Shown here: positions 6,587 through 42,800 of the stretch, piece after piece
Numbering within the stretch: position 1 is the first letter of the stretch
How the letters are laid out: every line of letters starts with the position of its first letter
Source of the DNA: Colletotrichum lupini
Lineage: Eukaryota; Ascomycota; Sordariomycetes; Glomerellales; Glomerellaceae
Direction of reading: 5' to 3'
DNA length: 64,000 nucleotides
Assembly (NCBI RefSeq): GCF_023278565.1
Contig: NC_064676.1
Span: forward strand, 7,254,001-7,318,000
Notes under the pieces: model-generated
The model's database searches: none
What the model was told of the DNA's origin: nothing
Seen by the model: the letters and a program-made list of their open reading frames with translations, nothing else
Position numbers and translations under genes: made by a program

Positions 6587-8389
6587 TCAGTCAGACCTCT
6601 GTCGCAGCTTGACGTGAACCGGCATCCCGTCAGAAATCTGCGGTGTGCCCTTTTCAGTCTGGTAGCACCGGTCTCCCTCCACAAGCATTTTGGGGTTTGT
6701 GGTATTCCCGCTGCGCAAAGAGTCAGCATTTAGGTCCCCATGATTGAACGAGTTCTTGAGGTATGCGGTTTTGGGAACTTACTTGAGGGCATCCCACTCA
6801 TCCCAGGCGCAGTCAATCTCAAAGTTGCGCGCGAGGGAGACCAGGACCAACTTCATTTCAACTACGGCTAGCTCTTGGCCAATACAGGCACGGCTTCCGA
6901 GTCCAAAGGTCCTCCATCCGTGCTTCTTTGGGTGCAATGGATCTTCCGGGTCTGTCGTCATCCATCGCTCTGGCACGACCTCGTTGCCTCTCGGCCACAA
7001 TTCCTCGTTGCGAGACTGCGAACGTAACCCGTCCCATATGAGGAATCCGCCGGTGGGATATTGCTCTCCTGTGATGCTGTCGGTGATGCGATAATGCGAT
7101 TGTCCGTCTCGAATGACAGGAGGACCGGGAAACAAGCGCAGTGCTTCCTTGATAACTCCGCCTGTGTAGAGGAGGGAGTTGAGCAAGTGCGGCGACTCTC
7201 TGATCTTGGCGGTTGCATCTGCGGGGTCTTTGCCCAAGACTTCGTCGTGTTCAGCCCGTAGCTTTTGGCCAACTTCGGGATTCTTGGCGATGCAGTGTAT
7301 CGCCCAGCAAAGAGCCGTGGCCGTCGTATCGTAACCGGCAAACATGAAGATCTTGAGCTGGGAGACGACTGTCTCTAAAAATAACCGGTCCACATTGACC
7401 ACACCAGACATGGGCTTCAGCGCCAAGTCGATGATGGTCTTCAGCCCCTCCTTCTTCTTTGTTCCTTTGAGGGATCGCTCGATCGATGGTAGTAGTTCGC
7501 TGTACATTGTCTCCCTGTTCTCTTTGATAGCAGCCAGCCGCCACGGGCTGTACCACTTCCACATGGTGACAATATTAAGATGGAGAATCACCCTAGAAAT
7601 CTGGTCCATGAGAGCACTTCTGAATCTGCTAGGTCCGTTTGTCTGCTCATGAAGCTCGATATCAAGCACCGCTCGGCCGATGACATCCATGGTCAAGTTG
7701 GTCGTGGTCTCCACGAGCGGAAACACATCACCCCAAGAGCCGTCGACGCCAGCTTTTTCCCGCATAATATCGGCGAACACCTCGACATCCTCCAACATTC
7801 CGGGAACAAGGCCGAGAACGTTTTTGTTACTGAAACTGGGGTTGAACCTCGCGCGCCACGTCTTCCACGGCTCGCCTACCAAACATGCGAGGTCCATTGC
7901 TTCCGTGATCGGGGCCAATGCCTTCTTGGTCCAGTCACTACGCGGCACGCTGGCGTCGAACATGTAGTGGCCTGCTGCTTCCGGGTGCACAGTGAAAACT
8001 AGCGGAGGACCCATAGGCCACATGTCGGCATAGATTGCTGAGGGACACGACGTCCGGCCGGGGAAGAGCGTTTCCCAGTTGTCGACGATGGCTTGAGCAT
8101 AGTAGTTGAAGTGTACCTCTTTGGGTAAGTGCGAGGTGAGCTTCATGAGTAGGCGCAAGTGGCCAAATAGAAGCGAGTGAGGCATCATTGGCTATGTCGT
8201 GTTAGAAGCCTGGCTTCCCAAGTGTGCTTGAAAACTCACGACTCCTTGTCTCTGAAGCTTGCGAAACGTCATTCGCTCTTGGACCATTCGAGCCAAAACG
8301 TAGCCGATGCCAAGTGCTGCGGCCAGACCCAAAAGGCGGAACATCATTGCCATGGGGCTCTCGACCCCCGAAGCTGCGAAAAAGCCCAT
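6587..8389 (-). CDS. Cytochrome P450 monooxygenase, membrane anchored
   Basis: Three exons, 8389-8240, 8191-6783 and 6710-6587, give 560 residues. Introns are 48 and 72 bp with GTGAGT and GTAAGT donors, and the frame is kept across both. Residues about 14-35 form an N-terminal membrane anchor, followed by QGVPMMPHSLLFGHL, the usual proline-rich hinge. The catalytic core has the oxygen-binding I-helix AGYDTTA (335-341), the K-helix ExxR (399-402), a PERW motif (457-460) and the haem loop FGLGSRACIG (479-488) with Cys486 as iron ligand. It should act at the endoplasmic reticulum with NADPH-P450 reductase. The substrate is not predictable. The regulator and exporter nearby would suit detoxification or a small secondary-metabolite module. 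Confidence 0.93.
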
Positions 8390-9538: not shown

Positions 9539-9543
9539 GCCAA
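9539..9543. repeat. Left target-site duplication of copia element 1 (GCCAA)
   Basis: Five bases GCCAA sit directly left of the LTR. The right copy at 16350-16354 reads GCTAA. The single difference is C to T before A, a RIP-type change. Confidence 0.7.
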
Positions 9544-9745
9544 TATTAGTATCCCTATTACAGGGTAGTTAGTTCGAACCGTAGTTAACGAAGAGATCAA
9601 TTGAACTATCTAGATATCTACGTAGGTATAAAAAGGAGGTTCTAACCGTAGGTTAGGCTAGCTATAATAATTATAAATAGGGCCCCTAATTAGCCCCTAC
9701 GTAATCGGCTATATGCCGCGGTCAAATTAGACTTCTAATCTAATA
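9544..9745 (-). repeat. LTR of copia element 1 (3' LTR in coding sense)
   Basis: 202 bp, aligning end to end with 16148-16349. The outer end keeps some CA/TG (for example TTACAGGG and ATCAATTGAAC) that are TA in the partner LTR. Confidence 0.88.
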
Positions 9746-12700
9746 CTAACTTTCTCTTTCTTTTATCGATTTAACCGCTATAGTTAGAAGTATAATTCGA
9801 CCTCGGGCCCGTTTACTAAGTCGTCTCCTTTTCCCCCTTTTCTCTATTCTTTTTATATAACCTATCCCTCTATTTATATAATAACTTTTCTACTACTTAC
9901 GAATTACTCTAATCCCTTATTTAGTACTACTTTTATAAAAGCGTTTGCGAGGTTATCTTTACTATTAATCTAACGGATCTCGAGTATCTTGCGCCTTTCG
10001 TACGATTACCTAAGGGCTATAATATTAATTATAAGCCTCTTTTCCTTCGTCGTTCCTAATTTAACGAGGTATTTGTATAGCGAGTAGGAATCGGTATAAA
10101 TAACCGTTAAAATAAGTAAAAGGCTAATTCGATTAGTAATTTTCTTTAGCGTCGTTAAAATTACGTAGGAGAGGTTAACGCTATTAACTATACTATAGAC
10201 TTCCGACGCTAATATACTTCTCGTTACCCGCTTACTTTTAATTAACGAGTAATAGATTATATTACTATATATAGTAAATTCGCTCTCGCTTATACTCTCG
10301 TTAGTTAAGATAATAATATACCCTAATTACGAAGTAAGGTCGTTATTATTCGTAAATAACCTATTAACAAAGACGTAGAGCTTACTAGTTATAAAGTCGA
10401 TTAGGTAGTAAACGAGACCTCGATCGAGATTTATCTACTACTACTTAAGCCGCTTATTAAGTACCTCGACGTCTCGTTTAGTTAGATCTATAACTTACGC
10501 TACCCTAACGTAATTAAAAGTTATTTTAGGCTAATAAATACTTATAATATATACCCCTTGCGTAAGCTTAGCCTTATACCGCTTTTTAATATTAATTACG
10601 TTCGGGTCGACGAGGTTAATCTTCTCGCCCTACCCCTTTTATTAAAAAACGACGGTTTCCTTTTTAATTATAAAAATCCCGCCGTTAAATACTAGGGGGG
10701 TATTTATTATAAGGACCTCTTTTAGCTTTATTACGAAGCCCGCTTTTTAGAGCTCCTTATCCTCCTTTTTTATAAAATTAATATCGAATAGGCTTAATAT
10801 ATCGTCGGTCTATATTTTAATAATCCTAAATTAGTCGCCTTTATACTCCGCGATTAATAAGAACGGGTCGTACGTAAAAGTAACTATTAATAATTAATTA
10901 ATATAAAAATCGTAATAGGTAGCCTACTAATAGGTACCCGATTTTGTGAGCCTATATAGTAGCTTAAGTACTTTAATAATCGTACCTTCTAAGTACTTAC
11001 TAGCTATTTCTTTTAGTAAATAGGCTAGGATTTTCCTTATGAGCCCTATAGCCGATTGGGTATATACCTAGGTAATATTACGGCTCTAAATCTCGTATCC
11101 CTTCTTCCGTAGTAATATTATTAGTACTATTATTAATTATTAGCTATAGCGCTATATAGTGGGCGATTATATAAGTAGCGTCGCCTTTTTAACGTCGCCG
11201 TACTCCTAAATTACGTATCTAGACTTCTCGTATAGTTAGGGTATTCCTTTTTTTTTAATTTTACGAACTATTCGCAATTTAAATATATAGAGGTTTGCAT
11301 ACTTTTCTAAATCGTAGAGGATAAATCGATAAACCCCTCGATCGCGCAGAGTATTTACTTCGATAAGATCTAATCCCTTATACGGCTTTTTAGTAGTTAT
11401 AATTACGCCTTCTTTATATAGTTTAACTACTAGCTCGAAATCGGCTTTCTTTTTTACTATATAAAAGGTATTAATTACCTCGTCGCTAGTAATAAATTGC
11501 CGCGTTAGTACTTACCGTCGTAGTCTCTCGCGACGTATTAATACCCTTTTAACAATTTCCTCTTCCTTATTATTTATTAGTACTATTACGACGATTTCGT
11601 CGAGGATAATTTCCTATACCTCTATTACAAGTTATATAGCTTCCCCTAGCTCTTCTTCTTTTTATAGGCTAAAAATTACCTCGATAGGATCTATATAATA
11701 TAGTCTAATTACTATAATTAATACTTCGAGTAGCTAGTTACGATCTCTCGCAACTATATAAGAACGCTCGTTAACGGAAATTAATTTATATAGCCTAGCC
11801 TATTATTAAGTAATTTCGCGCTATACTCGTATATCTGAATTTAGGGGCATATTTAAATTAACCTCTATATTGGGCCTATTGCGCGTAGTAATTACTTTAT
11901 TAACTTATTTTCTTACGCTTACCTCGCGCAGTACCTATATTATTTTTTTAACTACTTAAGCTCGCTAGCTTATATCTAGCGACGGTAGCGAGGCTAAGGT
12001 CGTTTTTAAATATACTCTAAATACTAAAAGCGTCGGTATAAGCCCGTTAGGCCCTATAGTATCGTTATAGTATTTAAGTACTGTTTAGAAACATTCGTCG
12101 TCATTAGAATCGGGATTTTCCTTTTTAATAATTTTAAACGCTCTTTTTAATTACTAATACGCCCTTTCTACTTTTTTAATACTATAGTGCGCTTCGACGG
12201 GCACGACTTTTAACTATATACCGTAGGCCGTCGCATTTTTTTTAAATTTTACTAATTTAAAACTAATACTAGCGTCGGTTTTAATACCGTCTAGCGATCC
12301 TTAGTATATATCGATCTAGCTTTTTCGTAGAGCTACCTATATTATTTTTACTTATAAATCCCGTAAGAATTGCCCTACTTAGAATAATATAGCCTCGTCG
12401 ATTATATATAGGACCGGTCGACTATTGAAGTAGAAGATATTAACGACGATCTCCTAATTAAAGTTAAGCTTATTACGTAATTTAAATTTAAATTTGCGTG
12501 GGCTCTGCGCATTTATTTAGCATTAGTAGTATACTTTCGTTAACTACTCTAGCGCCCCTATTTCGATATTATTATTACTTAAATATTTTAAGAGGTTATA
12601 TAGCCTCGCGACCGACGGGTAGCTAAATCTCCGGTATAGTTATCTAAGCTTACTTTCCGTTAAGTAATTAATCGACTTCGTATTATTAATAAGCCTTATA

Positions 12701-15700
12701 AACGTATACCCCTATTATCGTTCGACTATTTCGAAGTGCTTGCGGCTAGAGATTCTATTCTTTGTATTATCGAATATAATACCTAGTCGATCTATATCTT
12801 TTAGATATAAGAGAAATAGGGTATTAACGGGTAAGATATAAAAAGTTATCGTTCCGAAGTGCGTTTCTATTTTTATTATACTTAGGGCGACGATTTCCTT
12901 ACTTAGGCCGAAGCTAATCCTCGCAATACCCGCTATTAACGTATTAAGCGTTACTAGTGCGATTTTCTATAGCGCTTAGAATTACCCTTTTCCTCTTATT
13001 AACTATTACGATGCCCTAGTATCTAGGATAATCCTATAGAAATTATCTAGGCCGTACCTTTTATTCGCATAAAATACTTATACGAGCTTAGTATTTAAGT
13101 AATTTAAGTAGTATAAAAAGGACCCCTCTAGCTACCCCTAGAATTACTTAGCACCCTATCTCTTTTCTTTAGATATTAAGAGAGTAGAATTTTGCGCTAT
13201 TAGATTCGTCCTTTTGCCTACCTCCGTATCCGTTATCTAAGGGACCTTCCCTTACTATCCGTAGATAAAAGCCTGCTTATTAAGGGCTTCTACTACCTTT
13301 TATTTATTTAGCCTCGTATATCCTCCCGAGGCTAACGGGGCAAAAAAAGAGTAGTTAATATCGTTAACTTCGTTATAATCTAATTCGTTAGTATAGGGGG
13401 TAAGATCTTCTTTATTTTCCGAATCTCCTATAGGGTATAGGTACTTTAGGCCGCTAAATTAGCTACTTTCGCTAGGTTCCGTACCCCCGGATCTGCCCTT
13501 ATATATAACGAGGAATTAGTTAAATCGATAAGGGCTAGTTTTACTATCTACTACCCTCGATTTTCTATATTATTCGTACGATTTAGTACGCTCTTCCTCG
13601 GAGTAGTTACTTAACTAATATCTATCCTTTTTATAAATAAAACACTACTTTTTCTATTACCCTACTCGCGAGTTAAATCTCTACTTATTTAATAAATCTA
13701 GGATTCCCTACTAGCGATTACCGTACCTAGCTTCTTTTCCTTTCTTATTATACGTTTGGTTAACCTAATACTATTAGTAAGGGCCGTTATACGCTTAGAG
13801 GTAGGTTTAGCGCGGCATTCTTATTTTAATATTAAAGCTAGATCTTAGCCTTAAGTAGAGCGTCTCGTAGTCTTCGGGTACTTAGTATAGAGTTATTTTT
13901 GCCTTTAGAACGCGCTAGATTGCGGTATAGAGATATCTAACTTTCCGCTCGTTAGTCCCCTTATTTAGCTAGGTTTTCGCTAGCTTATTAATTTAATCGA
14001 TAAGCTCTTCGAGGATTTTTACTCGCGATTTGCCCTCTATTATCCTAGCTATAAATATAAAAAAAATCGCTCGTAGCTTAAATAGGAGCTCTAGGTTCCT
14101 ATTATAGGTCTCGAAGCGGCTTCGGATTGCGTTAATTATATTAAAAAAGTCGTTTTAATTAAGATTACGCACCGCTTCGTAGTAGTAATTAGAGGCTTTG
14201 CCTATGAGTATAATATTAACTACTAAATAGTACTAGTATTCCCTAATTCCGACTTTTTTATAGTAATTATAAAACATCGTTAGGGTTTTTTATAAGACCT
14301 TATACTTCCCCCTAGAGTATAATTTCTCTTTTAGGAAGATCTTTTTAAGGTTTATAAACTGCCTCGTATTCGCCGCTAGATTTTTAGTATCTATATACGA
14401 TCCCTACGTCGCTACGTATTATTAGTAACTTCGGGTAGTCTACCTCTTTTCTTACTAGCCGATTAGTACCGAATTTCGTATTAGTAGCGGCGACGAGCTA
14501 TAGATCGAAATAGGTAGAATTATCGATTATCGTACTTCTAGTACTATATTTTACCTCTATATATCCTTTTATAACAATAGATTACCGTTAGTAATTATAA
14601 AAAAGAAATCTAGGTCGTTTACCCTTTTTTTAAATTCGTTAAAGCGATTATATACCCTGTCGACTTGTGCCTAGGTCTATATTACGAATTCCTCCTCTAT
14701 AATCGTCGCTACTAAGATTTCGTAAGGTTCTCGCGATTATAATTACGCTAGTAGTACCCCTCGCCTATAAAAAAATCTATTAATCGCTTTCGCAATTCCT
14801 AGGCTTATACTTACGAACTATTTATCTAACTAATAGCTAAGGTCGTCTACGATCTCGTAAAATAGGGGTTGCCCCTATAGTCCCTTTTTCTCGTAGACCT
14901 TAGTTAAATAGATTAATACCGTATTAATTTACTTACCGTTAGGCTAATCCGCGATTCTATATATCTACGTCCCTTAATAATCCGGGTTAATATTTACTTA
15001 CTTATAAGGGATAGGGATTCTATCTAGGATCGGGTTTCGCCCTCTCCTTCTTTACCCTAACTTACTAAGGGTCGTGCCCTAGTTTATGCCCGTATTAGTA
15101 GTTACTAGCGTATTTAATCTTAATAAAGATATATCTAATCCGCGCGCTAGTTATAGCAAATCCGTACTTTTACTACCTAACGAATTTATCGGGGTCTAAG
15201 AGATTCCCGCTTCCTCTTACTATCTTACTACTACTCTCGTTTCTACCCTCTTTAGTAATTACTACTACCCTTTTAGATCGCTAGCTATCGTACCTATTAG
15301 GATCCTCCTTTTTATTTAATATAAAAGGGTAGGTTTTAGTAGTTCCTTTTTTTAATAGTAGCGGTAGACGTTTATATTACCGTAAAACAATATAATAATT
15401 AGTCTTGGGATCTTTACCGGTTACCGATTTCCGCTTTTCTATATATTTCTAGCCTCCTAAGCCTCGTGCTCTCCGTAATCTCTAAATCCCCTCCTCCCTC
15501 GTTAGACCGTCCCCTATACTATATTCCTAAGTAACACTCGGGGGGTAGTTAAGGGAGCTACGGGGAGGTCGTTTAGATCGCGGGCTTAAGGTCGTACCTA
15601 TAAGATCTTAGTAATAATAAACTTTTTCTATATACTATAGATCTCTTAGCTTAATAACTTTTATATACTTCTTACTACGCTAACTAAGAATATTTACGTT

Positions 15701-16147
15701 TAGAGATCCCTTTTTTTAATTGCGCGGTACTCTTTTATACTATATTATTAAGCTCGCTCGTTGTGCTAATTAACTAAGCGGGTAGTCGCTATATAGGTAT
15801 TTCTTTTTATTAATTTAACTAGTTAATTTCTAATCGCGGGCCGGCCGCGGAAAAGTTATTTAATAAAAAGGCTACTTAAGGCGATAGTAAAAAACTAGTT
15901 ACTTAAGTAGTTCCGTTAATTAACTTAATTAACGTAGTTTAATATAGTAGACGTCGACCTCTCGTAAGTAATAAAGGGCTACGATTACTTAATTCTATAC
16001 GGTATTTAAGAATCGCCCCCTTTTTCGTCTACTTTTATAAGGTTAATTAGTACGAATCTCTTATCCCGTGCGGTATTAAGAGGTCGTCTTTTTTATATAG
16101 CAAAATACCTTACTAATCTACGATAATAAAATTTAATTACTAATTAA

Positions 16148-16349
16148 TATTAATATCCCTATTATAAGGTAGTTAGTTCGAACCGTAGTTAACGAAGAGA
16201 TTAATTAAACTATTTAGATATCTACGTAGGTATAAAAAAGAGGTTCTAACTATAAGTTAGGCTAGCTACGATAATCGTAAATAGGGCCCCTAATTAGCCC
16301 CTGCGCAGTCGGCTATATGCCGCGGTCGAATTAGACTTCTAATCCGACA
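16148..16349 (-). repeat. LTR of copia element 1 (5' LTR in coding sense)
   Basis: 202-bp partner of 9544-9745. The right end ...AATCCGACA preserves the CA terminus. The left end TATTAATATCCC is a RIP-mutated form of TGTTAGTATCCC. Confidence 0.88.
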
Positions 16350-16354
16350 GCTAA
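16350..16354. repeat. Right target-site duplication of copia element 1 (GCTAA)
   Basis: Partner of GCCAA at 9539-9543 with one C to T change in a CpA context. Confidence 0.7.
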
Positions 16355-16410: not shown

Positions 16411-16875
16411 ATGTCGGAGATCGACCCTTCAAGCCCACATATTGCCACCTTCATAGCCAAAGTCTCCGCCGAGCTCAATATTTCTCTTTCGCCACCCAAG
16501 GATGTAACAGCTTTCGGCGACAATCCGGCCTTGAAAGACGAGCTTCTGGATCTTCTGCCTCAGGGCAAGAAAACATCTACAACAACCTGGCCAATCCCTG
16601 AAACGCTTCATTGGGGAGTTAGTGACCTTTCCATTATACTTGACGGCAAAGGAGAACCAAGGGCTATCATTAAGACAACGTCGTTTGAGAGATGCAAGTT
16701 TCGGGATGTAAGGGAGGAATTCGCGCTTGCGGAGGGAGAGGGGAATTATCAAGAATGGAGAGACGGGCACAAACGATATTTCGAGCGCAGCGAGAATTCA
16801 GAGGATTTCAGTGAAGACGTTGAGGTGCTATGCGAGTGGTTTGAAGTAGTGTATCCTCAAATTACGAGGAAGTAG
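16411..16875 (+). CDS. ASCH-domain protein, YhfF-like
   Basis: A single-exon gene of 154 residues starting 62 bp right of copia element 1. Residues about 36-145 follow the ASCH (PUA-like beta-barrel) pattern of bacterial YhfF relatives: FGDNPALKDELLDLL..GKKTSTT, then P.P...W.VSD.SIILDG.GEPRAIIKTT, F.DV.EEFALAEGEG, W..GH..YF and a closing CEWFEVVYP. ASCH domains bind RNA or modified nucleosides, and some hydrolyse N4-acetylcytidine; the exact ligand is unknown here. The frame is fully intact although it sits between two RIP-destroyed elements. Single-exon structure and a mainly bacterial family leave horizontal transfer possible. Confidence 0.8.
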   Translation: MSEIDPSSPHIATFIAKVSAELNISLSPPKDVTAFGDNPALKDELLDLLPQGKKTSTTTWPIPETLHWGVSDLSIILDGKGEPRAIIKTTSFERCKFRDVREEFALAEGEGNYQEWRDGHKRYFERSENSEDFSEDVEVLCEWFEVVYPQITRK

Positions 16876-17071
16876 AGTCGAGCAAACCCATGTTGGTGAA
16901 GAGAATATGAAAACCGCTTTGGCTTGGATCAACAAATATCAACAGATAAGAGCTAGTAGAGCAAAAATTGTATCAAATAATCTTCTCCAAGAGCAATTGA
17001 CGTGTATGGAAGTGCTCCGAGGCAAAAGAGAAGTGATCTGCATCTTGTTGCCTCGAAATGCAAAAGGGTTG

Positions 17072-17158
17072 GGCCCTAACCAGGATTCGAACCTGGGACC
17101 TCTCCCAGACGTGTCGTGAAGACCCTAAGGGAGAATCATACCGCTAGACCATCAGGGC
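17072..17158 (-). tRNA. tRNA-Pro (AGG) with a 15-nt intron
   Basis: Read on the minus strand, the acceptor arms GCCCTGA and TTAGGGC pair (one G-T), the D arm is TGGTCTAGCGGTA, and the anticodon stem CTCCC/GGGAG encloses TTAGGG with anticodon AGG. The T arm CCAGG-TTCGAAT-CCTGG is perfect. Sixteen bases separate base 37 from the 3' stem, leaving a canonical 15-nt intron. It is the only RNA gene between the two copia elements. Confidence 0.92.
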
Positions 17159-18550
17159 GGTTGAACTCAAACTGAGCTTGTGATCGATGAGGTCGGAGGC
17201 GAGATGCCAGACTATGTTGTGTTTGTGGGTGGAATAGGGCTTTTGTCGCTCGTGGGGACGTTTGGGGGCCGAAATGAGGATCCGCGGGCCGGTCCCGGAC
17301 GCCCACAACCCGGAGGGACCGGCTCTGGTGTGCCGGAACCCCGTGGTGCAGTGGTCCTGTAATCTGGCCAGCGGGCGCGGGTTGAGCTTGAAAACTGGCG
17401 CAAAGGGTGCTGCATATGGGGCAATTTGTGATAGGATCCAGGTCACAAGCGCACCAGCGAAGCCGGCTTTCTTTTTACACCAATGAACATTGAAGTCTCA
17501 AGAGTGAGAGACGAGTTCCTAGACTCTAGTCACTTGGGCTACATTCTGGACGCATCGAGAGTCTGCCCTTGGACGTACTCAAATTTCGACCCCAGGAATT
17601 CATTCCAAAGATGTTGGGCTCTCATTCCCTAAATTCCCGAAAATGGGCTCCTCATCTAGTTCCATGGGGATTTGGTGCCCCGCTGTGTGCACCCCACGTT
17701 GATGTGGACAGCTTGCATGGGATTTTTTCTTTCCAGCATGTTGCTGGACCTCTTGTGGGTTCACAAGTACAACGCGGCAATCCGGCAGAAAATTTTGGGA
17801 AGAAAGGGTGAGACTACAAATACTAGAGCAATAGTGTTGTGGTTTTCAATTTCTTGCCAGTCGCCAAGCGAAATGGAGTACTCTCGATTTCATCATGCAA
17901 TGTGTAGAGGTGAGTCGAGCCGGCGGTGTGCTTTGCGGGACTAAGGAGACGGGGAATGCGGAGAAGATCTCCGAATGTAAGATCTTGAAAACCCGAAAAG
18001 AACTGCTTTCGAACCTCAGAAGCACAGGCGTGGTCTCGGACCTGGACGCTCATTTTGAGCCAAAGAGTGCTGTATTGCTGCACCCGTGCAGAGTTGGGGA
18101 ATCTTAGAAACATTGCATTCCAGTTGGTCCCGGTTCTGGAGCTTCAAGCATAACTGTGACTAGCTCTCTCGTGAAGCAGATCACCTCAAGTGCTTACTTT
18201 CGAGCCGTAAGCTTATGTACATTAGTGCGATACCAGTCTCGTAGGCTGGACTGATACATCTAAGCTGCATTATTAATGCTCTTTGACGCTTGAGCCTGTG
18301 ACACTACCAACCAAGTTCGCGTCATAACATGATGAACGCGTACGCCCAATGCCTCGATTGATCCGGCAGTCCGGGACAAACTTTGAGGTCGATATTTTCT
18401 TGGGTGAACCTTGATGTCGCATGTCTTCTCCTGGGAACATGCAAACTCTTTATGAATCTCCATTGCCCCAAAGATTCGTACATCAAGACGACTGAAAGCT
18501 TGACCAACATCCATAAGAAGAACTGAAATCATAGAGCGGCCTATATAACG
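17159..18550. other. Intergenic stretch between tRNA-Pro and the split GDSL gene
   Basis: Normal base composition and no RIP signature. Several frames of 60-100 codons occur on both strands with no recognisable domain. The last part (about 18450-18550) is the presumptive promoter of the GDSL gene and contains a CTATATAA TATA-like box at 18541. Confidence 0.45.
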
Positions 18551-18655
18551 ATGCTCAGTTATAGAATTTGGATTGCGTTCCTCGCAACGGCTTACGCTAT
18601 AGTTCTGCCGTCAACGCAGTTGCTACGTGAGGTCAAAGCCTCTTCTATCTCTAGC
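18551..18655 (+). pseudogene. 5' fragment of a secreted GDSL/SGNH esterase gene, interrupted by copia element 2
   Basis: Thirty-five codons starting with an ATG 11 bp after a CTATATAA box. The hydrophobic start (MLSYRIWIAFLATAYAIVLP) is a plausible secretion signal. The fragment ends in ...SSISS exactly at the retrotransposon border. The continuation at 25629 begins IVVFGDSFSDNG, the block I serine motif of the SGNH/GDSL family. Removing the element and one copy of its 5-bp duplication joins the frame without a shift: 105 bp is an exact 35 codons. The gene is therefore broken only by the insertion. Confidence 0.85.
18651..18655. repeat. Left target-site duplication of copia element 2 (CTAGC)
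   Basis: Lies within the GDSL coding sequence. The right copy at 25624-25628 reads CTAGT and is followed by A, so it is a C to T change in a CpA context. Confidence 0.75.
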
Positions 18656-18857
18656 TATCGGATTAGAAGTCTAATTCGACCGCGGCATACAGCCGACTGC
18701 GCAGGGGCTAATTAGGGGCCCTATTTACGATTATCGTAGCTAGCCCAACCTATAGTTAGAACCTCCTTTTTATACTTACGTAGATATTTATATAGTTTAA
18801 TTAATCTCTTTATTAACTATAGTTCGAACTAACTACCCTATAATAAGGATACTAATA
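18656..18857 (+). repeat. 5' LTR of copia element 2
   Basis: 202 bp beginning TATCGGATT, a RIP-altered TGTCGGATT, and ending ..GATACTAATA for ..GATACTAACA. The outer end keeps CA pairs (CGGCATACAGCC) that are CGGTATATAGCC in the 3' LTR. Confidence 0.9.
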
Positions 18858-21800
18858 CTAATTAGTAATTAAATTTTACTATCGTAGATTAGTAAGGTAT
18901 CTCGCTACGTAGAAGAGACGACCTCTTAATACCGCACGGGATAAGAGATTCGTACTAATTAACCTTACGGAAGTAAATAAAAAAGGGGGCGATTCTCGAA
19001 TACCGTACGGAATTAAGTAATCGTAGCCCTTTACTACCTATAAGAGGTCGACGTTTACTACGTTAAACTACGTTAATTAATAGAACCGCTTAAGCGACTA
19101 GTTTTTTATTATCGCCTTAAGTAGCCTTTTTACTAAATAACTTTTCCATAGCCGGCCCGCGATTAGAAATTAACTAGCTAAATTAATAAAAAGAATTCCC
19201 TATACGACGACTACTTACTTAATTAACTAGCGTAACGAACGGGCTTAATAATACGGTATAAAAGAGCACTACGTAATCGAAAAAGGGGATCTCTAAACGT
19301 AAACATTCTTACTTAGTAATAAAGGTAACCCTATAGGAGTTATTAAGCTAAGAGATCTATAGTATATAAAAAAGTCTATTACTACGGGGATCTTATGGGT
19401 ACGCCCTTAAGCCTACGATCTAAACGACCTCCTCATAGCTCCCTTAACTACCCCCCGGGTATTACTTAGGAATATAGTATAAGGGACGGTTTAATAAAAG
19501 AGGAGGGGATTTAGAGGTCCTAATAATATCGAGTTAAGAGTATTACGGATCTCGGAGATTAACCTAAGAAGAAAGTAGCTACCTTAAAGTAGTCCTGCGA
19601 CCTCCCGCTAGAGTTACTATTAGCTTAAAAAAAGGCTAAAAAGACGAGGATCTGAGGGAAAAGAAAAGAATCCTCTAGAGGGCCGCTAAAGGGCTTCTTT
19701 TTATACTAACTTACGGCGCAAGATTACTAATTTTAAAAAATCGGTAACTAGTAAAGATCCCGAGACTAATTACTATATCTTATTATAGTAATATAAACGT
19801 CTACCGCTACTATTATTAAAAGGAACTACTAGAACCTACCCTTTTATACTAAACGAAAAAGAGGATCTTAGTAAGTACGATAGCTAGCGATCTAAAAGGG
19901 TAGTAATAATTATTAGAAATAATAAAAACGAGAGTAGTAGCAAGACGGCGAGAAGAAGCGGGAATTTCTTAGACCTTAATAAATTCGTTAGGTAGTAAAA
20001 GTACGGATTTACTACGACTAGCGCGCGGATTAAATATATCCTTATTAAGATTAAATACGCTAGTAACCGCTAATATAAGTATAAGCTAGAGCACGACCCT
20101 TAGCGAGTTAGGGTAAAGAAGAAGAGGACGAAACCCGATCCTAGATAGAATCCCAATCCCTTATAAATAAGTAAATATTAACTCGGATTATTAAGGGACG
20201 TAGATATATAAAATCGCGGATTAGCCTAACGGCGAGTAAATTAACGCGGTATTAATCTATTTAACTAAGGTCTATAAGAAAAAGGGGCTATAGGGGTAAC
20301 CCCTATTTTATAAGATCGTAAATAACCTTAGCTATTAGCTAGACGAATAGTTCGTAAGCACAAGCCTAAGAATCGTAAAAGCGGTTAATAAATTTTTTTA
20401 TAGGCGAGGGGTATTACTAGCGTAATTATAATCGTAAGAACCTTACGAAATCCTAGTAGCAACGATTACGGAAGAGGAATTCGTAATATAGACCTAGGCA
20501 TAAGTCGACAGGGTATATAATCGCTTTAACGAATTTAGAAAAAGGGTAAACGACCCAGATTTCCTTTTTATAATTACTAACGGTAATCTATCGTTATAAA
20601 AGGATATATAGAGGTAAAATATAGTACTAAAAGTACGATAATTAACAATTCTGCTTATTTTGATCTATAGCTCGTCGCCGCTATTAATACGAAATTCGGT
20701 ACTAATCGGCTAGTAAGAAAAGAGGTAGACTACCCGAAGTTACTAATAGTACGTAGCGACGCAGGGATCGTATATAGATACTAAAAATCTAGTAATAAAT
20801 ACGAGGCAGTTTATAGACCTTAAAAAGATCTTTTTAAAAAAGAAATTATACTCTAGAGAGAAGTATGAGGTCTTATAAGAAACCCTAACGATGTTTTATA
20901 ATTACTATAAAAAAGTCGGAATTAGGGAATACTAGTACTATTTAGTAGTTAATATCGTACTCGTAGGCAAAGCCTCTAATTATTACTACGAAGTAGTACG
21001 TAATCTTAATCGAAACGACTTTCTTAGTATAATTAACGCAATCCGAAGCCGCTTCGAGACCTATAATAAGAACCTAGAGCTCCTATCTAAGCTACGAGCG
21101 ATTTCTTTTATATTTATAGCTAGGATAATAGAGGGCAAATCGTAAATAGAAATCCTCGAAGAGCTTATTAATTAAATTAATAAGCTAGCGAAAACCTAGC
21201 TAAATAAGGGGACTAACGAGTAGAAAATTAGATATCTCTATACCGTAGTCTAGCGCGTTCTAAAAGTAAAAATAACTCTATACTAAGCACCCGAAGACTA
21301 CGAGACGCTCTGCTCGAGGCTAAGATCTAGCTTTAATATTAAAGCGAGAATGCTATGCTAAACCTACCTCTAAGCGTACGACGGCCCTTACTAATAATAT
21401 TAGGTCGACTAAATATATAATAAAAAAAGAAAAGAAGCTAAGTACGGCAATTACTAATAGGGAATCCCAGATTCGTTAAATAGGTAAAGATTTAACTCGC
21501 GAGCAGGGCAATAGAAAAAGTAGTATTTTATTTATAAAAAGGATAGATATTAGTTAAGTAACTACTTTAAAAAAGAGCGTACTAAATCGTATAAATAATA
21601 TAGAAAATTGAGGGTAGTAAATAGCAAAACTAGCCCTTATCGATTTAACTAATTCCTCGTTATATATAAGGGCAGATCCGGGGGTACGGAACCTAGCGAA
21701 AGTAGCTAATTTAGTAGCCTAAAGCACCCGCACCCTATAGGAGATTCGGAAGATAAAGAAGATCTTACCCCCTATACCGACGAATTAGATTATAACGAAG

Positions 21801-24800
21801 TTAATAATATTAACTACTCTTTCTTCGCCCCGTTAGCCTCGGGAGGATATACGAGGCTAAACGAATAAAAGGTAATAGAAGCCCTTAATAAGTAGGTTTT
21901 TATTTATAGATAGTAAGGGAAGGTCCCTTAGATAACGGATACGGAAGTAGGTAAAAGGACGAATCTAATAGTATAGAATTCCACTCTCTTAATATCTAAA
22001 AAAAAGAAATAGGGTACTAAGTAATTCTAAGGGTAGCTAGAGGGGTCCTTTTTATACTACCTAAATTACTTAAATACTAAGCTCGTATAAGCATTCTACG
22101 CAAACGAAAAGTATAGCCTAGATAATTTCTATAGGATTATCCTAGATACTAGGGCATCGTAATAGTTAATAAGAGGAAAAGGGTAATTCTAAGCGCTATA
22201 GAAAATCGCACTAGTAACGCTTAATACGTTAATAGCGGGTATTGCGAGGATTAGCTTCGGCCTAAGTAAGGAAATCGTCGCCCTAAGTATAATAAAAATA
22301 GAGACGCACTTCGGAACGATAACTTTTTATATCTTACCCGTTAATACCCCATTTCTCTTATATTTAAAAAACATAGATCGACTAGGTATTATATTCGATA
22401 ATACGAAGAATAGAATCTCTAGCCGTAAGTACTTTAAAATAGTCGAACGACAATAGGGGTACGCGTTTATAAAGCTTACTAACGACACGAAGTCGATTAA
22501 TTACTTAACGAAAAGTAAGCTTAAATAACTATACCGGAGATTTAGCTACCTATCGGTCGCGAGGCTATATAACCTCTTAAAGTATTTAAGTAATAATAAT
22601 ATCGAAATAGGGGCGCTAGAGTAGTTAACGAAAGTATATTACTAATACTAAATAAATACGCAGAGCCTACGCAGATTTAAATTTAAATTGCGTAATAAGC
22701 TTAACTTTAATTAGGAAATCGTTATCGATATTTTTTACTTAAATAGTCAACCGGTCCTATATATAATCGACGAGGCTATATTATTCTAAGTAGGGCAATT
22801 CCTACGGGATCTATAAGTAAAAATAGTATAAGTAGCTCTATAAAAAAGCTAAATCGATATATACTAGGGACCGCTAGATAGTATTAGAACCGACGCTAGT
22901 ACTAGTTTTAAGTTAGTAGAATTTAAAAAAAATGCGACGGCCTACGGTATATAGTTAAAAGTCGTACCCGTCGAAGCGTACTATAATATTAAAAAAGTAA
23001 AAAGGGCGTACTAATAGTTAAAAAGAGCGTTTAAAATTATTAAAAAAGAAAATCCCGATTCCGATAACGACGAATGCCTTTAGACGGTACTTAAATACTA
23101 TAACGACACTATAGGGCCTAACGGGCTTATACCGATGCTTTTAGTATTTAGAATATATTTAAGAACGACCTTAGCCTCGCTACCGTCGCTAGACGTAAGC
23201 TAGCGAGCTTAAGTAGTTAAAAGAATAATACGGGCACTACGCGAGGTAAGCGTAAGAAGGTAAGTTAATAAGGTAATTACTATACGCAATAGGCCCGATA
23301 TAGGGGTTAATTTAGATATACCCCTAAATTCGGATATACGAGTATAGTACGAAATTACTTAATAATAGGCTGGGCTATATAAATTAATTTCCGTTAACGA
23401 GCGTTCTTACGTAATTACGAGAGATTGCGACTAGCTACTCGAGGTATTAATTACGGTAGTTAGACTATATTATATAGATCCTATCGAGGTAATTTCTAGC
23501 CTATAAAAAGAAAAAGAGCTAGGGGAAGCTATATAACCCGCAGTAGAGGCATAGGAAATCATCCTTAACAAAATCGTCGTAGTAGTACTAATAGATAACG
23601 AGGAAGAGGAAATTACTAAAAGGGCACTAATACGTCGCGGGAGACTACGACGGTAAGTACTAACGCGGCAATTTATTACTAATAACGAGGTAATTAATAC
23701 CTTTTATATAGTAAAAAAGAAAGCCGATTTCGAGTTAGTAATTAAACTACGTAAGGAAGGCGTAATTATAATTACTAAAAAGCCGTATAAGGGATTAGAT
23801 CTTATCGAAGTAGATACTCTGCGCAATCGAGGGGTCTATTGATTTATCCTTTACGATTTAGAAAAGTATATAAACCTCCGCATATTTAAATCGCGAATAG
23901 TTTATAAAATTAAAAAAAAAGGAATACCCTAACCGTACGAGAAGTCTAGATACGTAATTTAGGGGTACGACGACGTTAAAAAGGCGACGCTACTTATATA
24001 ATTGCTTACTATATAGCGCTATAGCTAACGATTAATAATAGTACTAATAGTATCGCTACGGAAGAAGGGATACGAGATTTAGAGCCGTGATATTACCTAG
24101 GTATATACCCAATCGGCTACAGGGCTTATAAAGAAAATCCTAGCCCATCTACCAAAGGAAATAATTAGTAAGTACTTAGAAAGCACGATTATTAAAGTGC
24201 TTAAGCTACTATATAGGCTCGTAGAATCGGGTACTTATTAATAAGCTACTTACTACGATTTTTATATTAATTAACTATTAATAGTTACCTCTACGTACGA
24301 CCCGTGCTTACTAGTCGCAGAGCACGAAGGCGACTAATTTAGGATCGTTAGAATATAGACCGACGATATATTAGGCCTATCCGATATTAACTTTATAAAA
24401 AAGGAGGATAAGGAGCTCTAAAAAGCGGGCTTCGTAATAAAGCTAAAAGAGGTCCTTATAATAAACACCCCCCTAGTATTTAATAGCGGGATTCTTATAA
24501 TCGAAGGGGAAACTATTATTTTTTAGTAAAAGGGGTAGGGTAAAAAGATTAACCTCGTCGACCCGAACATAACTAATATTAAAAAGTAATATAAAGCTAA
24601 GCTTGCGCGAGGGGTATATATTATAAGTATTTATTAGCTTAAGATAACTTTTAACTACGCTAGGGTAGTATAGGCTATAGATCTAACTAAACGAGACGTC
24701 GAGGTACTTAATAAGCGGCTTAAGTAATAATAAACGAATCTCGATCGAGGTCTCGTTTATTACTTAATCGACCTTACGACTAATAAGCTCTACGTCTTTA

Positions 24801-25421
24801 TTAATAAGTCATTTGCGAATAATAATAACCTCACTTCGTAATTAGGGTATATTATTATCTTAGCTAACGAGAGTATAGGTAAGAGCGAATTTATTATATA
24901 TAATAATATAATCTATTACTCGTTAATTAAAAATAAGCGGGTAATAAGAAGTGTACTAGCGTTAGAGGTCTATAGTATAGTTAACGGCGTTAACTTCTCC
25001 TATGCGATTTTAACGATGCTAAGGAAGATTACTAATTGAATTAGCCTTTTACTTATTCTAACGGTTATCTATACCGATTCTTACTTACTATATAAATACC
25101 TTATTAAATTAAGAACGACGAAGGAAAAGAGGCTTATAATCGATATTATAGCCCTTAGGTAATCGTACGAAAGGCGCAAGATACTTAAGATCCGTTAGAT
25201 TAATAATAAAAATAACCTCATAAACGCTTTTATAAAAGCAGTACTAAATAAGGGATTAGAGTAATTCGTAAGTAATAAAAAAGTTACTATACGAATAGAG
25301 GGATAGGTTATACGAAAAGAATAGAGAAAAGGGGAAAAGGAGACGACTTAGTAAACGGGCCCGAGGTCGAATTATACCTCTAACCGTAGCGGTTAAATCG
25401 ATAAAAAAAAGAGAAAGTTAG

Positions 25422-25623
25422 TATTAAATTAGAAGTCTAATTCGACCGCGGTATATAGCCGACTGCGCAGGGGCTAATTAGGGGCCCTATTTACGATTAT
25501 TATAGCTAGCCTAACCTATGGTTAGAACCTCTTTTTTATACCTACGCAGATATTTATATAGTTTAATTAATCTCTTTATTAACTACGGTTCGAACTAACT
25601 ACCTTATAATAGGGATACTAACA
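25422..25623 (+). repeat. 3' LTR of copia element 2
   Basis: 202 bp ending GGGATACTAACA, with the CA terminus intact, and preceded by a purine tract. It aligns without gaps to 18656-18857; the differences I could see are C/T and G/A. Confidence 0.9.
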
Positions 25624-25628
25624 CTAGT
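25624..25628. repeat. Right target-site duplication of copia element 2 (CTAGT)
   Basis: Partner of CTAGC at 18651-18655 with one RIP-type C to T change. Confidence 0.75.
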
Positions 25629-26679
25629 ATTGTAGTATTCGGTGACTCTTTTAGCGATAACGGTAAGCGATCGGTGGTAATTCGACGGACTTGCGTTTAG
25701 GATGGATATGACTGACGGGATGCGAGTTATAGGGAACGGGGCTGCTCGAGTATCGAATAATGCCTGGCCTATAGACAAATAGTCAGTGAACCCCTTTCCG
25801 CTATGTCTGTTCTAGTTTAATTCATGTAACAGCCAATTCAGCTACAAGGGTCGCTTTTCGAACGGCATCGTCTGGGCAGAATATGTAGCAGCTAACCTCT
25901 CATTACCCCTTTACGACTATGCGGTAGGAGGTGCAACGACTTCGAATGCCCTTGTCCAGGGCTACACAGGCGCAAAGGGTGATATCGCTGTACCTTCTGT
26001 TCTTGATCAAGTCGTCTCGTTCTTGGGGAAGATAAATCCTCAAGGAGGAGCCTTCGAAGCGTACGATTCGATGGCAATGGAAAGCCCATTGCTGATAATG
26101 TTTGCTGGTGCCAACGATATCCTGTTTAACGCCAACATCAGTGCTTCGCAGTCGTATCAAATTCTTCGTCAAGCCGAAGCACAGCTCCGCGATGCGTACC
26201 CAAGTGCAAGAGTCTTGACTCTAACCCCGCCCGATATCTCCAGACTTCCGTATGGCTTCTACTTGGAAGACAATCTGGCAAAAAACCAGTTGCGAACTTT
26301 CACAGGCCAGCTGGGAGAACTACTCGACAGGTCAAAGACGGGAGCCGTCAACCTTGATCTTCGGCCGCTCTTCGACGACTTTGAGTACTATGCTTCTCCT
26401 CGGGCGTACGGATTTGACCCACTGGGAAAGTACGGCAGTTGCCTCGAAGGTGCATATGGCGAGACGCCGAACGTGACGATCTGCGGAGACCCAGATAGGC
26501 GGGTATACTGGGACGAATACCAGTGAGTTTTGGCTGGGCTCTTCTTTTCGATTCTTTTCCGAGCCGACTTGCCGTTTACCCAGCCTTCAGCTCTCATTCT
26601 GACGTCGTGCAGTCCTACAACTCATACACACTCGTGGATTGCCAAGGAGGTTCTAGACGTCCTGAGAGGTCCGTTCTGA
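25629..26679 (+). pseudogene. Main part of the secreted GDSL/SGNH esterase gene, separated from its 5' end by copia element 2
   Basis: Exon pieces 25629-25662, 25733-25781, 25833-26522 and 26613-26679 join in frame, with introns of 70, 51 and 90 bp and standard GT..AG ends. With the 105-bp 5' fragment they make 945 bp, or 314 residues. All SGNH blocks are present: FGDSFSDNG (catalytic Ser), an Asn/Gly block at GRFSNGIVWAEYVA and YAVGGATTSN, GANDI (block III) and DEYHPTTHTH (catalytic Asp and His). Length and layout suit secreted fungal GDSL esterases of the CE16/acetylesterase kind. No internal stop or splice-site damage is seen in this part. As it stands it lacks its own start, signal peptide and promoter, so it is probably silent. 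Confidence 0.88.
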
Positions 26680-39855: not shown

Positions 39856-42800
39856 GGGTGCTCCCTCCCCTAGGCTTCGTCCTAAAACCCGCTTACGGTT
39901 CGTATACGCTACGTTAATCCCTTACCTAGGAAGTCCTTAAATATATAGTACGAGGGTAGGTATAAGTAGCGCCCGTTAGCCCGAGTATAGACCCCTTACT
40001 CCGGATAATAGCCCTATAATTCTATACCCGGGTTACTCCTACCTATAGGCCGTCCTTATAACTGCTAATACCTAGGTAGTCGTTACCCTACTTTTATTTA
40101 CTAATATTAACCCCCTTCTAAGCTACTATAATTCCGAATTCCTTTTCTCTTTTTTTTATCCGTAGTTATCCTTTTTATATATAGTCTCTTATTTTTATTA
40201 GTATCTACGCTACTCCCTCGTTATATAAATATTACGGCTAACGAATATCTCTTAGATCCCTATTTTCGTATACTCCCCGTGCCTAAGTAAGTCTCTTTTA
40301 AAGTCGTTCCGTAGTCGCTATTAACTCGTTTTAATATAACTATAGCCCCTAATCGTAGCGTCGCTATTATTAATAATAAAACGGTCGTTAGTGCTATAGG
40401 TACGCCTAGTAGCAGCCGCAGTAGTAGTCCGCTTAAAAAGCCTAATATCCCTTTTACTCGCCCTAACTTCGTATATATATCGCTACTTATATACTACTTA
40501 TACTAACCGTTATAGACTCTTATTAAGAAAAAGAAAAAAGCGAACGCTAAAAAGATCGGGGTCGGCTAGGTACGCCCGCTCCCCTACCCCGCTTACGTTA
40601 TATATAAAGCGCTCGATCCGAAAGCTAAGTATTATAATTAACTAGGTTAGTAATTTATAGCCCCTAGTTCGCTCTTTTATCTAATACTTTTTTAGGATCT
40701 AGCGTGCGTTATATTAAGTATACCGCGCAGAACTATTCTTATAAAAATATAATAAGTGCTTAGCGCTATCGCTACTCCGTCGCTTCTCCTAAATATTATA
40801 CTAATAATATCTTAGGTCCCTAAGTCCGTAGAATTTATAATACGAACCTTTTAAAGTACTGCACTTACCTTTAATAATAACGTCTATAATTTAGAGGTTT
40901 ATTACTCCGTTATCGCTCTATTATCGCTACTACTTAGGTCGCTAATATTATTCTATAGTTTTAGTAAACTTACTAAATCGCTACTAGTAATACGCAGAGG
41001 GCGCTTAAGCGCGCTAGTAAAAAGGCCCGCTCGACCCCCGTTATTAATAGCGACGATAATAAAATAGCTACGAGCTCCTCTTATACTACGTCTTCGTCCT
41101 ATAACGACGCTATAATCGTACTATTTCGTACTATCCGTAATAAAGTACGCCGCTCTAATAACATTCTAACTAGTATATAGTCGCCCCGCCTACGCTCCGT
41201 ATTCGTAGCTAATTATTTATAAATTCGCTAATAATCAGGAGATTATTTCTTCCGTAACGACCCCTAGGATAATAGCTAGGGCGGCCCTTTTATATATAAG
41301 GGCGGTCCTTTTATAAATAAGGGCAGTCCTTCTACGCGTTATAAGGATTAAAAGAACGGTTAGTAATTAGTACGTTTGCGCTACTTAATTATAACTATAT
41401 AGCCCCTTTTTTTTATTATTAGTAGCTAGTTCGCTACGTTATTAAGCTCCTTAAGAGCTAGGGCGCGCTACTTAATTAAAACTCGTTCTTTATATATACT
41501 AATTAACGCTACGTCTTTAATATACCTAGCTAGCTCTTACGTATTTTCGTTATTACTATATCCCTTCTACCGGATTAGGTATTATCGCCTCCTCTTCGGC
41601 CCTCTATATTATATAATATCTTCTACTTCGTAAAGTAGCTCCCTATTTATATCCCCAATAAGTAAGGGCTTCCGAGGGGCTTCTTTGCGGTATTAATACG
41701 GCTTGAGTAAGGATATATAAAATATATCGTATATTTTATACTACGTTAATATTTCTAGTTAATAAGCGACCCCCGCCGTTCTAATTATTAATTTAACTTC
41801 GAATAGGCCTAGATACTTATTAGCTAACTTCTAGCTAAGACGCTACCTCCTAATATTCTTTCCTAATAATAGTACCTAGTTGCCCACTTTATATAACATA
41901 TCTATCCTAGCTTTATTAGCTTATTATTTATATATCTCGCGTGCTTTTTATATAAAGGGTCGTAGAGCTTCTTAGTTAGCTTATAGTCGGGCCGTACGCT
42001 CCTTAGCTAAGATATTCTATATACCGTCTCGAGTCCCTATTAAGATCGACATAGGGTACGTAAATAGGAACCCGAGTAGGGCCTTAGTAGGCGCTTTACG
42101 GATTACTAAATACTAGGCGTTATTATATATAAACTTAGCTAAGTAAAGACGCTATGCCTAATCCGATTAGTCCTAAGTATAGAAATAATAAAAGTACTAC
42201 TCTAAGTATTAGTTCTACCGTTCTATCTAACTATCCGTTTACGGGTAGAACGTAGTACTAAAACGCCTCTTTATTACTAAAAAGTAGTAAAAATAAGTCT
42301 AAAACTTACTTATAAATAACGACCCCCTATTAGAGATAATCCTTTTAGGTATTCTAAACTTAGTAAAGATCTTTACGAATAGGAGGTCTACGAATCCCTA
42401 GGCTATAAGGGTCGTCCTTATAGTAATATAGACGCTATACTTCGTAAATCGGTTTATTACGACGAGTACCGCGTCATAGGGGCGCCTCCCGATTAGCGTA
42501 GTTAATACGGGTAAGCCTATAATAAAATCTAGCGATATCTCCTATTATAGCCTAACCGGGGTAGGTAGGGGGCGTAATAAGCTATACGGCTTATAATAAC
42601 GAGGCTTCGTCCGCTAGTATACTATATAAGTATTAATATAACTTTTTATATCCTTACTCACTCTATCTTAGTAATAATAGCGTTTTAGTAACGCTATTAT
42701 CCGCTTTATACTATAATATCCCGCTATGGGCGTATCGTAATATACTTTAATAACCTCCCTCCTTAGCCCCTTATATAGTAGTACGTAGGCGCGGCTACTA

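What the first reader, a model, noticed from the sequence alone, without database searches (positions are those of the whole stretch)
18551..26679. GDSL esterase gene split by a copia retrotransposon yet otherwise undamaged
Removing 18656-25623 and one copy of the 5-bp duplication rejoins a 314-residue secreted GDSL esterase in perfect frame, with all four catalytic blocks and all three downstream introns intact. The element is destroyed by RIP while its host gene shows no decay. Insertion and RIP must therefore have been recent and fast, or this allele is kept by recombination with intact copies. The locus dates RIP against normal mutation.
Basis: partly seen in the sequence, partly recalled or inferred. 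Interest (0 to 1): 0.75.

Follow-up and report, generated by a model that had tools for sequence, protein, structure and literature searches.

The report
Esterase gene broken by dead retrotransposon
In one strain of a fungus thought to be purely clonal, a jumping element broke an enzyme gene and was then destroyed by a repeat-killing mutation process that also scarred the edges of the gene, which suggests recent sex or a sex-free version of that process.

Summary
The split is real. A 6,968-bp Ty1/copia-type LTR element (18656-25623) with a 5-bp target duplication sits in exon 1 of a secreted GDSL esterase gene of Colletotrichum lupini, the only copy found in this genome. A second C. lupini assembly and sister species encode the protein uninterrupted, and the halves match it end to end. 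"Otherwise undamaged" is wrong. Within 150 bp of the element 6 residues are replaced, including the relatives' start codon; CpA>TpA/TpG>TpA changes explain them all. The 248 residues further away equal the conspecific's. So RIP acted in place, after insertion, and leaked; the allele is null. "Recent and fast" holds: 20 sampled copies of the element differ by 9.1% transitions but 0.04% transversions (18 columns, each private to one copy). A second copia family, about 29 near-identical copies, is nearly free of RIP-type changes. C. lupini is published as asexual, so the likely order is: burst, RIP (by sex, or by Dim2-type mitotic mutation), later burst largely without RIP. RIP leakage is a known phenomenon; the in-place, within-species record in a "clonal" pathogen is what makes this locus useful.

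The parts
18545..18655 (+). 5' part of exon 1 of the GDSL esterase gene (signal peptide region); relatives' start codon lost, next in-frame ATG at 18551
18651..18655 (+). target-site duplication, left copy (CTAGC)
18656..18857 (+). 5' LTR (202 bp)
   Evidence: boundaries from LTR-LTR comparison and from the TG end kept in the neighbouring copy
18858..25421 (+). internal region of the RIP-destroyed Ty1/copia-type element; one frame read from 20903 to 25417 holds 99 stops (55 TAA, 42 TAG, 2 TGA)
25422..25623 (+). 3' LTR (202 bp)
25624..25628 (+). target-site duplication, right copy (CTAGT, one CpA>TpA change)
25629..25662 (+). rest of exon 1 with GDSL block I
25663..25732 (+). intron 1
25733..25781 (+). 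exon 2, carries the one downstream RIP-type replacement
25782..25841 (+). intron 2
25842..26522 (+). exon 3, identical in protein to the conspecific
26523..26612 (+). intron 3
26613..26679 (+). exon 4 with the catalytic His block, stop codon included
9544..16349 (-). second copy of the same element family, inverted, RIP-destroyed; TSD 9539-9543 GCCAA / 16350-16354 GCTAA
16411..16872 (+). ASCH-domain gene, the esterase gene's neighbour in related species (synteny control)

Best explanation
In the lineage of C. lupini that gave this assembly, a Ty1/copia-type retrotransposon inserted into exon 1 of a secreted GDSL esterase gene, between the signal peptide and catalytic block I, and abolished it (shown from sequence). 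The insertion was one of a burst of nearly identical copies (shown for 20 sampled copies; several hundred in all is a rough count). [quoted passage not shown] RIP acted in place, because the two LTRs, which are identical at insertion in this kind of element, now differ only by transitions, and because RIP-type replacements spilled at least 110 bp upstream and 149 bp downstream into the gene (shown). The rest of the gene was beyond reach and too young to have decayed otherwise (inferred). RIP is normally premeiotic, so a sexual cycle after the insertion is the likeliest cause (inferred, about 0.55). A later copia burst largely escaped RIP, so RIP has hardly acted on that family (inferred).
For: Intact conspecific protein P0004 and uninterrupted proteins in C. 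filicis, C. melonis, C. tamarilloi, C. scovillei and C. simmondsii. Five of 37 residues upstream and 1 of 276 downstream differ from P0004; distances 32-110 bp and 149 bp; all 7 minimal base changes are CpA>TpA or TpG>TpA, against 3.6% of all possible replacement changes and 12.3% of replacement transitions in exon 3. C. filicis and C. melonis agree with P0004 at 6 of 6 sites, C. tamarilloi and C. scovillei at 5 of 6. Control gene (ASCH), compared with C. melonis because no C. lupini allele was listed: 2 of 12 minimal changes RIP-type (Fisher p = 7e-4). (CA+TG)/(AC+GT) is 0.15 inside the element, 0.53 in the first 107 bp downstream, 0.92 in exon 1, 1.25-1.33 upstream. LTR pair: 17 of 202 sites differ, all transitions, 12 in CpA/TpG context. 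Twenty copies over 4.5 kb: transitions 9.15%, transversions 0.041%, 18 transversion columns, all private to one copy. Both element copies in the window show one CpA>TpA difference in a target duplication. RID-like and DIM-2-like methyltransferase genes with open frames are present (the motif assignment EQT/ENV is recalled).
Against: No DNA of the intact conspecific allele could be fetched, so silent changes, introns and the promoter are uncompared, and the empty site was seen only as an uninterrupted protein. Exon 3 also has moderate CpA/TpG ratios in places (0.77-1.31), so the ratio alone does not mark the leak; the residue comparison does. Only 774 of 1442 transition columns have the mutated state mainly in TpA context, and 5 of 17 LTR differences are outside CpA/TpG context, so the mutation is not purely CpA-directed. 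Sister species vary in the same N-terminal stretch, although P0004, C. filicis and C. melonis are identical there.
Confidence: 0.85

Rival explanations
1. The CpA>TpA mutation happened during clonal growth through a DIM-2-dependent, mitotic RIP-like process, with no sexual cycle; heterochromatin spreading from the element would explain the flank changes.
For: Such a mutator is described for Zymoseptoria tritici with functional dim2, with >98% of C>T transitions at CA (PMC8016269, passages). An open DIM-2-like frame exists here. C. lupini shows clonal population structure (PMC10189766, passages). In the other, nearly RIP-free copia family 7 of the 18 variants are CpA>TpA/TpG>TpA, in 4 of 29 copies, which a weak ongoing mutator would give.
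Against: That second family, about 29 near-identical copies and an ideal target, has only 18 variants in all over a 1.76-kb piece, 11 of them in one copy, and 20 copies are identical; it may simply be too young. RIP of the sampled copies to about 9% pairwise difference with 0.04% transversions needs a strong mutator. LTR and copy differences are not confined to CpA.
Confidence: 0.3
2. Insertion and RIP are old and were polymorphic in a sexual ancestor; the clonal lineages merely inherited different alleles, so nothing happened recently within C. lupini.
For: Only two C. lupini alleles could be compared. Published TE insertions are mostly present in about half of 16 strains (PMC11645255 section 2.3).
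Against: Zero of 248 residues outside the leak differ from the conspecific. Copies of the family carry about 2e-4 transversions per site, all private, i.e. little time since the burst.
Confidence: 0.3
3. One reading: the allele is undamaged and kept intact by recombination with working copies.
For: Exons 3 and 4 are identical in protein to the intact conspecific.
Against: Only one match in this genome. Start codon and five other codons altered by RIP-type changes. No in-frame ATG ahead of the catalytic Ser block in the downstream half.
Confidence: 0.02
4. The apparent damage is natural variation of a poorly constrained signal peptide between lineages, not RIP.
For: The N-terminus is the most variable part across the 16 aligned sequences.
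Against: P0004, C. filicis and C. melonis are identical over that stretch. All 7 minimal changes are of RIP type, plus one in the target duplication.
Confidence: 0.05

Closest known systems
RIP leakage into single-copy genes beside RIPed repeats, AvrLm6/LmCys1 region of Leptosphaeria maculans (PMC2973834; abstract and passages seen)
   Same: RIP-type replacements in single-copy coding sequence, declining with distance from a RIPed repeat
   Different: There the species is prolifically sexual and the repeat lies beside the gene; here the element is inside the gene, the leak seen in coding sequence ends by 149 bp, and the species is published as asexual
RIP in 'asexual' Colletotrichum (C. cereale, Crouch et al. 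2008, seen only as cited in PMC5576322; C. higginsianum, PMC5576322, passages)
   Same: RIPed transposons in a species without known sex; RID and Dim-2 reported for C. higginsianum; the C. cereale authors are cited as proposing ancestral or cryptic sex
   Different: Here the RIPed insertion is tied to an intact allele in the same species and to flanking single-copy changes, which bounds its timing
RIP footprints as evidence of sex in Penicillium roqueforti (PMC3504111; abstract and passages)
   Same: Same inference from RIPed elements, copia among them, to sex events
   Different: No single insertion with an empty allele appears in the passages read
Ty1/copia LTR retrotransposons of fungi, e.g. 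Claviceps purpurea proteins named Reverse transcriptase Ty1/c... (P0112, P0116)
   Same: Reverse transcriptase/RNase H region about 44% identical with stops masked
   Different: This copy is dead
Fungal GDSL/SGNH esterases, CE16 among solved structures (7ztn, 8p1g) and thermolabile hemolysin 6jl1
   Same: GDSL block I and an Asp-x-x-His block at the C-terminus; N-terminus reads as a secretion signal (by eye)
   Different: Remote matches only; substrate unknown

Membership tests
Ty1/copia LTR retrotransposon | Long terminal repeats with TG...CA ends and short target duplication | tested here: met
   202-bp LTRs; 5-bp duplications at two copies; the TG end is kept at one end of the neighbouring copy and reads TA in this one; this copy ends in CA
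Ty1/copia LTR retrotransposon | Copia-type reverse transcriptase (RVT_2) | tested here: inconclusive
   24 homologues with stops masked; two source names begin Ty1/c and 3 of 24 carry PF07727; but 0 of 5 masked pieces matched an RVT_2 model in Pfam, and 0 of 20 fetched RVT_2 loci outside the near-identical group matched this element in DNA
Ty1/copia LTR retrotransposon | Integrase upstream of reverse transcriptase | tested here: inconclusive
   No integrase model matched the masked pieces upstream; RT/RNase H-like region at the 3' end fits the order
RIP | C:G>T:A transitions almost only | tested here: met
   17 of 17 LTR differences are transitions; 9.15% transitions against 0.041% transversions among 20 copies
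RIP | CpA preference | tested here: met
   (CA+TG)/(AC+GT) 0.15 in the element; 12 of 17 LTR differences; 7 of 7 gene changes. Preference, not exclusivity: 774 of 1442 columns
RIP | Confined to repeats, with short leakage | tested here: met
   Replacements only within 149 bp of the element; one gene match in the genome. Non-coding flanks had no comparator
RIP | RID (and DIM-2) present | tested here: met
   Open frames with DNA_methylase domain at C4:5961306 and C3:5036096; identity as RID/DIM-2 by recalled motifs, not by tree
RIP | Acts before meiosis in a sexual cycle | not testable with these tools
   Only the genome is at hand
GDSL (SGNH) esterase | GDSL domain | tested here: met
   Exon 3 alone: PF00657 44 bits over cut-off 23.6; relatives PF00657/PF13472
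GDSL (SGNH) esterase | Working gene in this strain | tested here: not met
   Gene interrupted, start codon lost, no in-frame ATG before block I in the downstream half; no expression data

The most novel reading that the evidence does not exclude
The genome of a supposedly purely clonal pathogen records alternating episodes: in a clonal phase one copia family exploded to several hundred near-identical copies, one of them breaking this gene; a single sexual episode (or a spell of sex-free mitotic RIP) then killed them nearly at once and scarred flanking genes; a second copia family has since expanded almost untouched. Insertions with leaked flanks and an intact sister allele, such as this one, would then mark on the strain tree when RIP last ran.
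Probability: 0.4. Interest if true: 0.72.

Novelty: new member of a known kind. Interest (0 to 1): 0.5.

Why it matters
C. lupini is published as asexual and probably purely clonal (PMC10189766 passages; PMC11645255). RIP footprints are hard to date when a RIPed repeat has no unmutated counterpart (general knowledge). Here the insertion site has an intact allele in the same species, the leak into single-copy coding sequence shows that RIP acted in place, and the copy family gives the ratio of RIP to ordinary mutation (about 224 transitions per transversion). Typing this site and its flanks across the sequenced lineages would tell whether RIP, and so probably sex, ran after the lineages split. 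It also names a gene lost in the assembly that the public annotation carries as a 'partial' protein beginning inside the LTR.

Tried and rejected
Rejected: the two halves belong to different genes (both match one protein in consecutive parts; ASCH and esterase genes are neighbours by locus number in C. jinshuiense and share a contig length in C. melonis, C. phormii and C. truncatum). Rejected: P0004 is an artefact of splicing the element out. Its sequence crosses the site without a gap, the breakpoint shows no usable intron ends (my reading), and it lacks the changes found here. Rejected: the element is a close relative of the other copia family; one 59-base match in 1 of 4 loci was found. Rejected: LTR divergence as a clock; all differences are transitions.

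Led nowhere: the DNA pattern scan (far too loose; used only to learn the genome's size and place). Pfam on element pieces. MAT alpha-box search (no match, but nothing rang in the controls either, so it says nothing). No relatives' DNA is available for this genome.

A paper that ran a RIP program on a set including the C. lupini assembly is now named.

Rows dropped: copy L043 from the 30 copies of the second family (its first 121 bases do not match the family; 78 variable columns with it; 13 without). Copies L108 and L109 from the 22 RIPed copies (41-42 transversions against this element; with them mean transversion 0.20%; without 0.041%). The 20 RIPed copies fetched are 20 of the 39 others listed as best-scoring (the first 14 in the list and 6 more that I picked), of 711 first-look candidates; the window's own second copy was added. 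They are not a random sample.
Full report
What the window is. The window lies at C3:7254001-7318000 of a 63.44-Mb genome in 12 contigs. Contig C3 is 7,882,614 bp, the length of the contig that encodes P0003, named Colletotrichum lupini. The eleven contigs whose lengths were printed add up to 63,407,421 bp, leaving 36,554 for the twelfth. PMC10076810 lists C. lupini RB221 at 63.41 Mb and 11 sequences (passages). PMC10189766 calls RB221 the lineage II reference (passages), and PMC11645255 calls IMI 504893 'CLUP02', lineage II-A, and gives genome sizes up to 63.4 Mb. That the window comes from this assembly is inferred from these matches.

The split gene. The 5' part of exon 1 (18545-18655) and the downstream part (25629-26679, three GT...AG introns) align separately to residues 1-37 and 38-313 of P0004, an uninterrupted 313-residue C. 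lupini protein on a contig of 456,575 bp, a length that none of the twelve contigs here has. P0003, the annotated product of the window's own locus, is labelled 'partial' and starts with five residues read from the LTR end and the target duplication. One match to the gene was found in this genome. The protein is uninterrupted in C. filicis, C. melonis, C. tamarilloi, C. scovillei and C. simmondsii. Its neighbour, an ASCH-domain gene (16411-16872), is also its neighbour by locus number in C. jinshuiense (EsH8_I_000154/155) and shares a contig length with it in C. melonis, C. phormii and C. truncatum. So this is one conserved gene at its ancestral place.

The element. It spans 18656-25623, with 202-bp LTRs that differ at 17 sites, all transitions, 12 of them with the mutated state in TpA context. 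The target duplication is CTAGC/CTAGT, the difference fitting a CpA>TpA change. A second, inverted copy lies at 9544-16349, 2.3 kb away, with duplication GCCAA/GCTAA and again one CpA>TpA difference. With stops masked, the 3' third matches 24 proteins, two of whose source names begin 'Reverse transcriptase Ty1/c' and 3 of which carry PF07727; Pfam recognises no retrotransposon family in the pieces. One frame read from 20903 to 25417 holds 99 stops, 97 of them TAA or TAG; six long stop-free fragments between 20936 and 25039 share that frame. The internal region has TA/AT 1.70 and (CA+TG)/(AC+GT) 0.15, the signature of RIP.

The gene is not undamaged. Compared with P0004, 5 of 37 upstream residues and 1 of 276 downstream residues are changed, at 32-110 bp and 149 bp from the element. 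The first is the relatives' start codon. Every change is explained with one or two base changes, 7 in all, each CpA>TpA or TpG>TpA. In exon 3 such changes make up 55 of 1549 possible replacement changes and 12.3% of replacement transitions, so 7 of 7 is far from chance (4e-7 under the milder null, taking changes as independent). C. filicis and C. melonis agree with P0004 at 6 of 6 sites, C. tamarilloi and C. scovillei at 5 of 6. Within 165 bp, 6 of 65 residues differ; beyond, 0 of 248 (p = 6.6e-5; the cut was chosen after seeing the distances). As a control, the ASCH gene differs from C. melonis at 11 residues with a mixed spectrum, 2 of 12 minimal changes RIP-type (p = 7e-4); this compares species, since no C. 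lupini allele of it was listed. RIP therefore acted in place, after insertion, and spilled at least 110 bp upstream, where the coding sequence ends, and 149 bp downstream. Non-coding flanks could not be compared; their CpA/TpG ratio upstream (1.33 in 18300-18544) shows no RIP.

Is the allele functional? Very unlikely. The downstream frame opens at 25599 inside the LTR without an ATG ahead of the GDSL block. The upstream frame from the second ATG ends after 54 residues. A leftover secreted peptide is conceivable but has no support.

How fast. A piece of the internal region gives 711 first-look candidates and the LTR 1423 (40 scored each), the 1:2 ratio expected for several hundred full copies; this is a rough count. 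Twenty-two copies were compared over 4.5 kb (the window's two, plus 20 of the 39 others listed). Two distant ones were set aside. The remaining 20 differ on average by 9.15% transitions and 0.041% transversions; 36 of 190 pairs have no transversion, and all 18 transversion columns are private to one copy. That is a star: one burst from a near-identical source, then RIP, with about 2.0e-4 transversions per site per copy since (18 in 88,845 bases). Not every transition sits in TpA context (774 of 1442 columns).

A family that largely escaped. In the same genome 53 RVT_2 matches include 33 without any stop; 29 of these form one near-identical group, 20 of them with a 1438-residue frame. In 29 copies of a 1.76-kb piece only 13 columns vary and 20 copies are identical (30 fetched, one truncated copy dropped, one kept copy has two stops). 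There are 18 variants in all, 11 in one copy; 7 of the 18 are of RIP type, spread over four copies. So it is nearly, not wholly, free of such changes. It is unrelated in DNA to the window's element apart from one 59-base match.

What it means. C. lupini is described as asexual and likely purely clonal, with no sexual state recorded (PMC10189766 passages; PMC11645255 abstract, part 1 of its Results, its Discussion and section 4.4). The latter's authors do not rule out rare sex, and the former reports past genetic exchange among lineages. 'RIP' as a word does not occur in PMC11645255. Two searches of the held library pairing 'Colletotrichum lupini' with 'repeat-induced point' (1 paper) and with 'RIP mutation' (0 papers) gave only PMC10076810, on C. 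graminicola; its methods say the RIP program RIPper was also run on a set of assemblies that includes C. lupini RB221, but no C. lupini RIP figure appeared in the passages I saw. Subscription journals are not held. RIP is held to be premeiotic, so a sexual cycle after the insertion is the plain reading. A DIM-2-dependent mitotic version is documented in Zymoseptoria tritici (PMC8016269 passages) and cannot be excluded, since a DIM-2-like frame is present and the second family shows a few RIP-type changes. P0004 probably comes from CBS 109225, lineage I (PMC11645255, PMC10189766), which would place insertion and RIP on the other lineage's branch. This is inferred, because the strain of P0004 is not stated. 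Inheritance of an older polymorphism also remains open.

Novelty. Leakage of RIP into single-copy genes is known (PMC2973834), and RIP in 'asexual' Colletotrichum is known (PMC5576322). The locus is a new, unusually well-bounded case of a known kind.

Noticed in passing
window 9544-16349 (-): Second, inverted, RIPed copy of the same element family 2.3 kb upstream, with its own 5-bp duplication; the linker between the copies holds an ASCH gene and exon 1 of the broken esterase.
   Followed up: yes
own genome, e.g. L017, L021-L042 (C1-C9): A different, AT-rich (32% GC) copia family with about 29 near-identical, mostly stop-free copies nearly free of RIP-type changes: a recent, largely unsilenced expansion in the same genome.
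   Followed up: partly
window about 40001-47000: Another AT-rich block (35-38% GC) that is not a copy of this element.
   Followed up: no
window 18551-18715 (+): Leftover 54-codon frame: signal peptide region of the broken gene fused to LTR sequence.
   Followed up: no
window 17071-17158 (-): tRNA-Arg gene predicted between the two elements.
   Followed up: no
window 6782-8191 (-): Long cytochrome P450 open frame (PF00067).
   Followed up: no
G000:C4:5961306 and C3:5036096 (L013, L012): Open frames of RID-like and DIM-2-like DNA methyltransferases, so the RIP machinery looks kept.
   Followed up: partly
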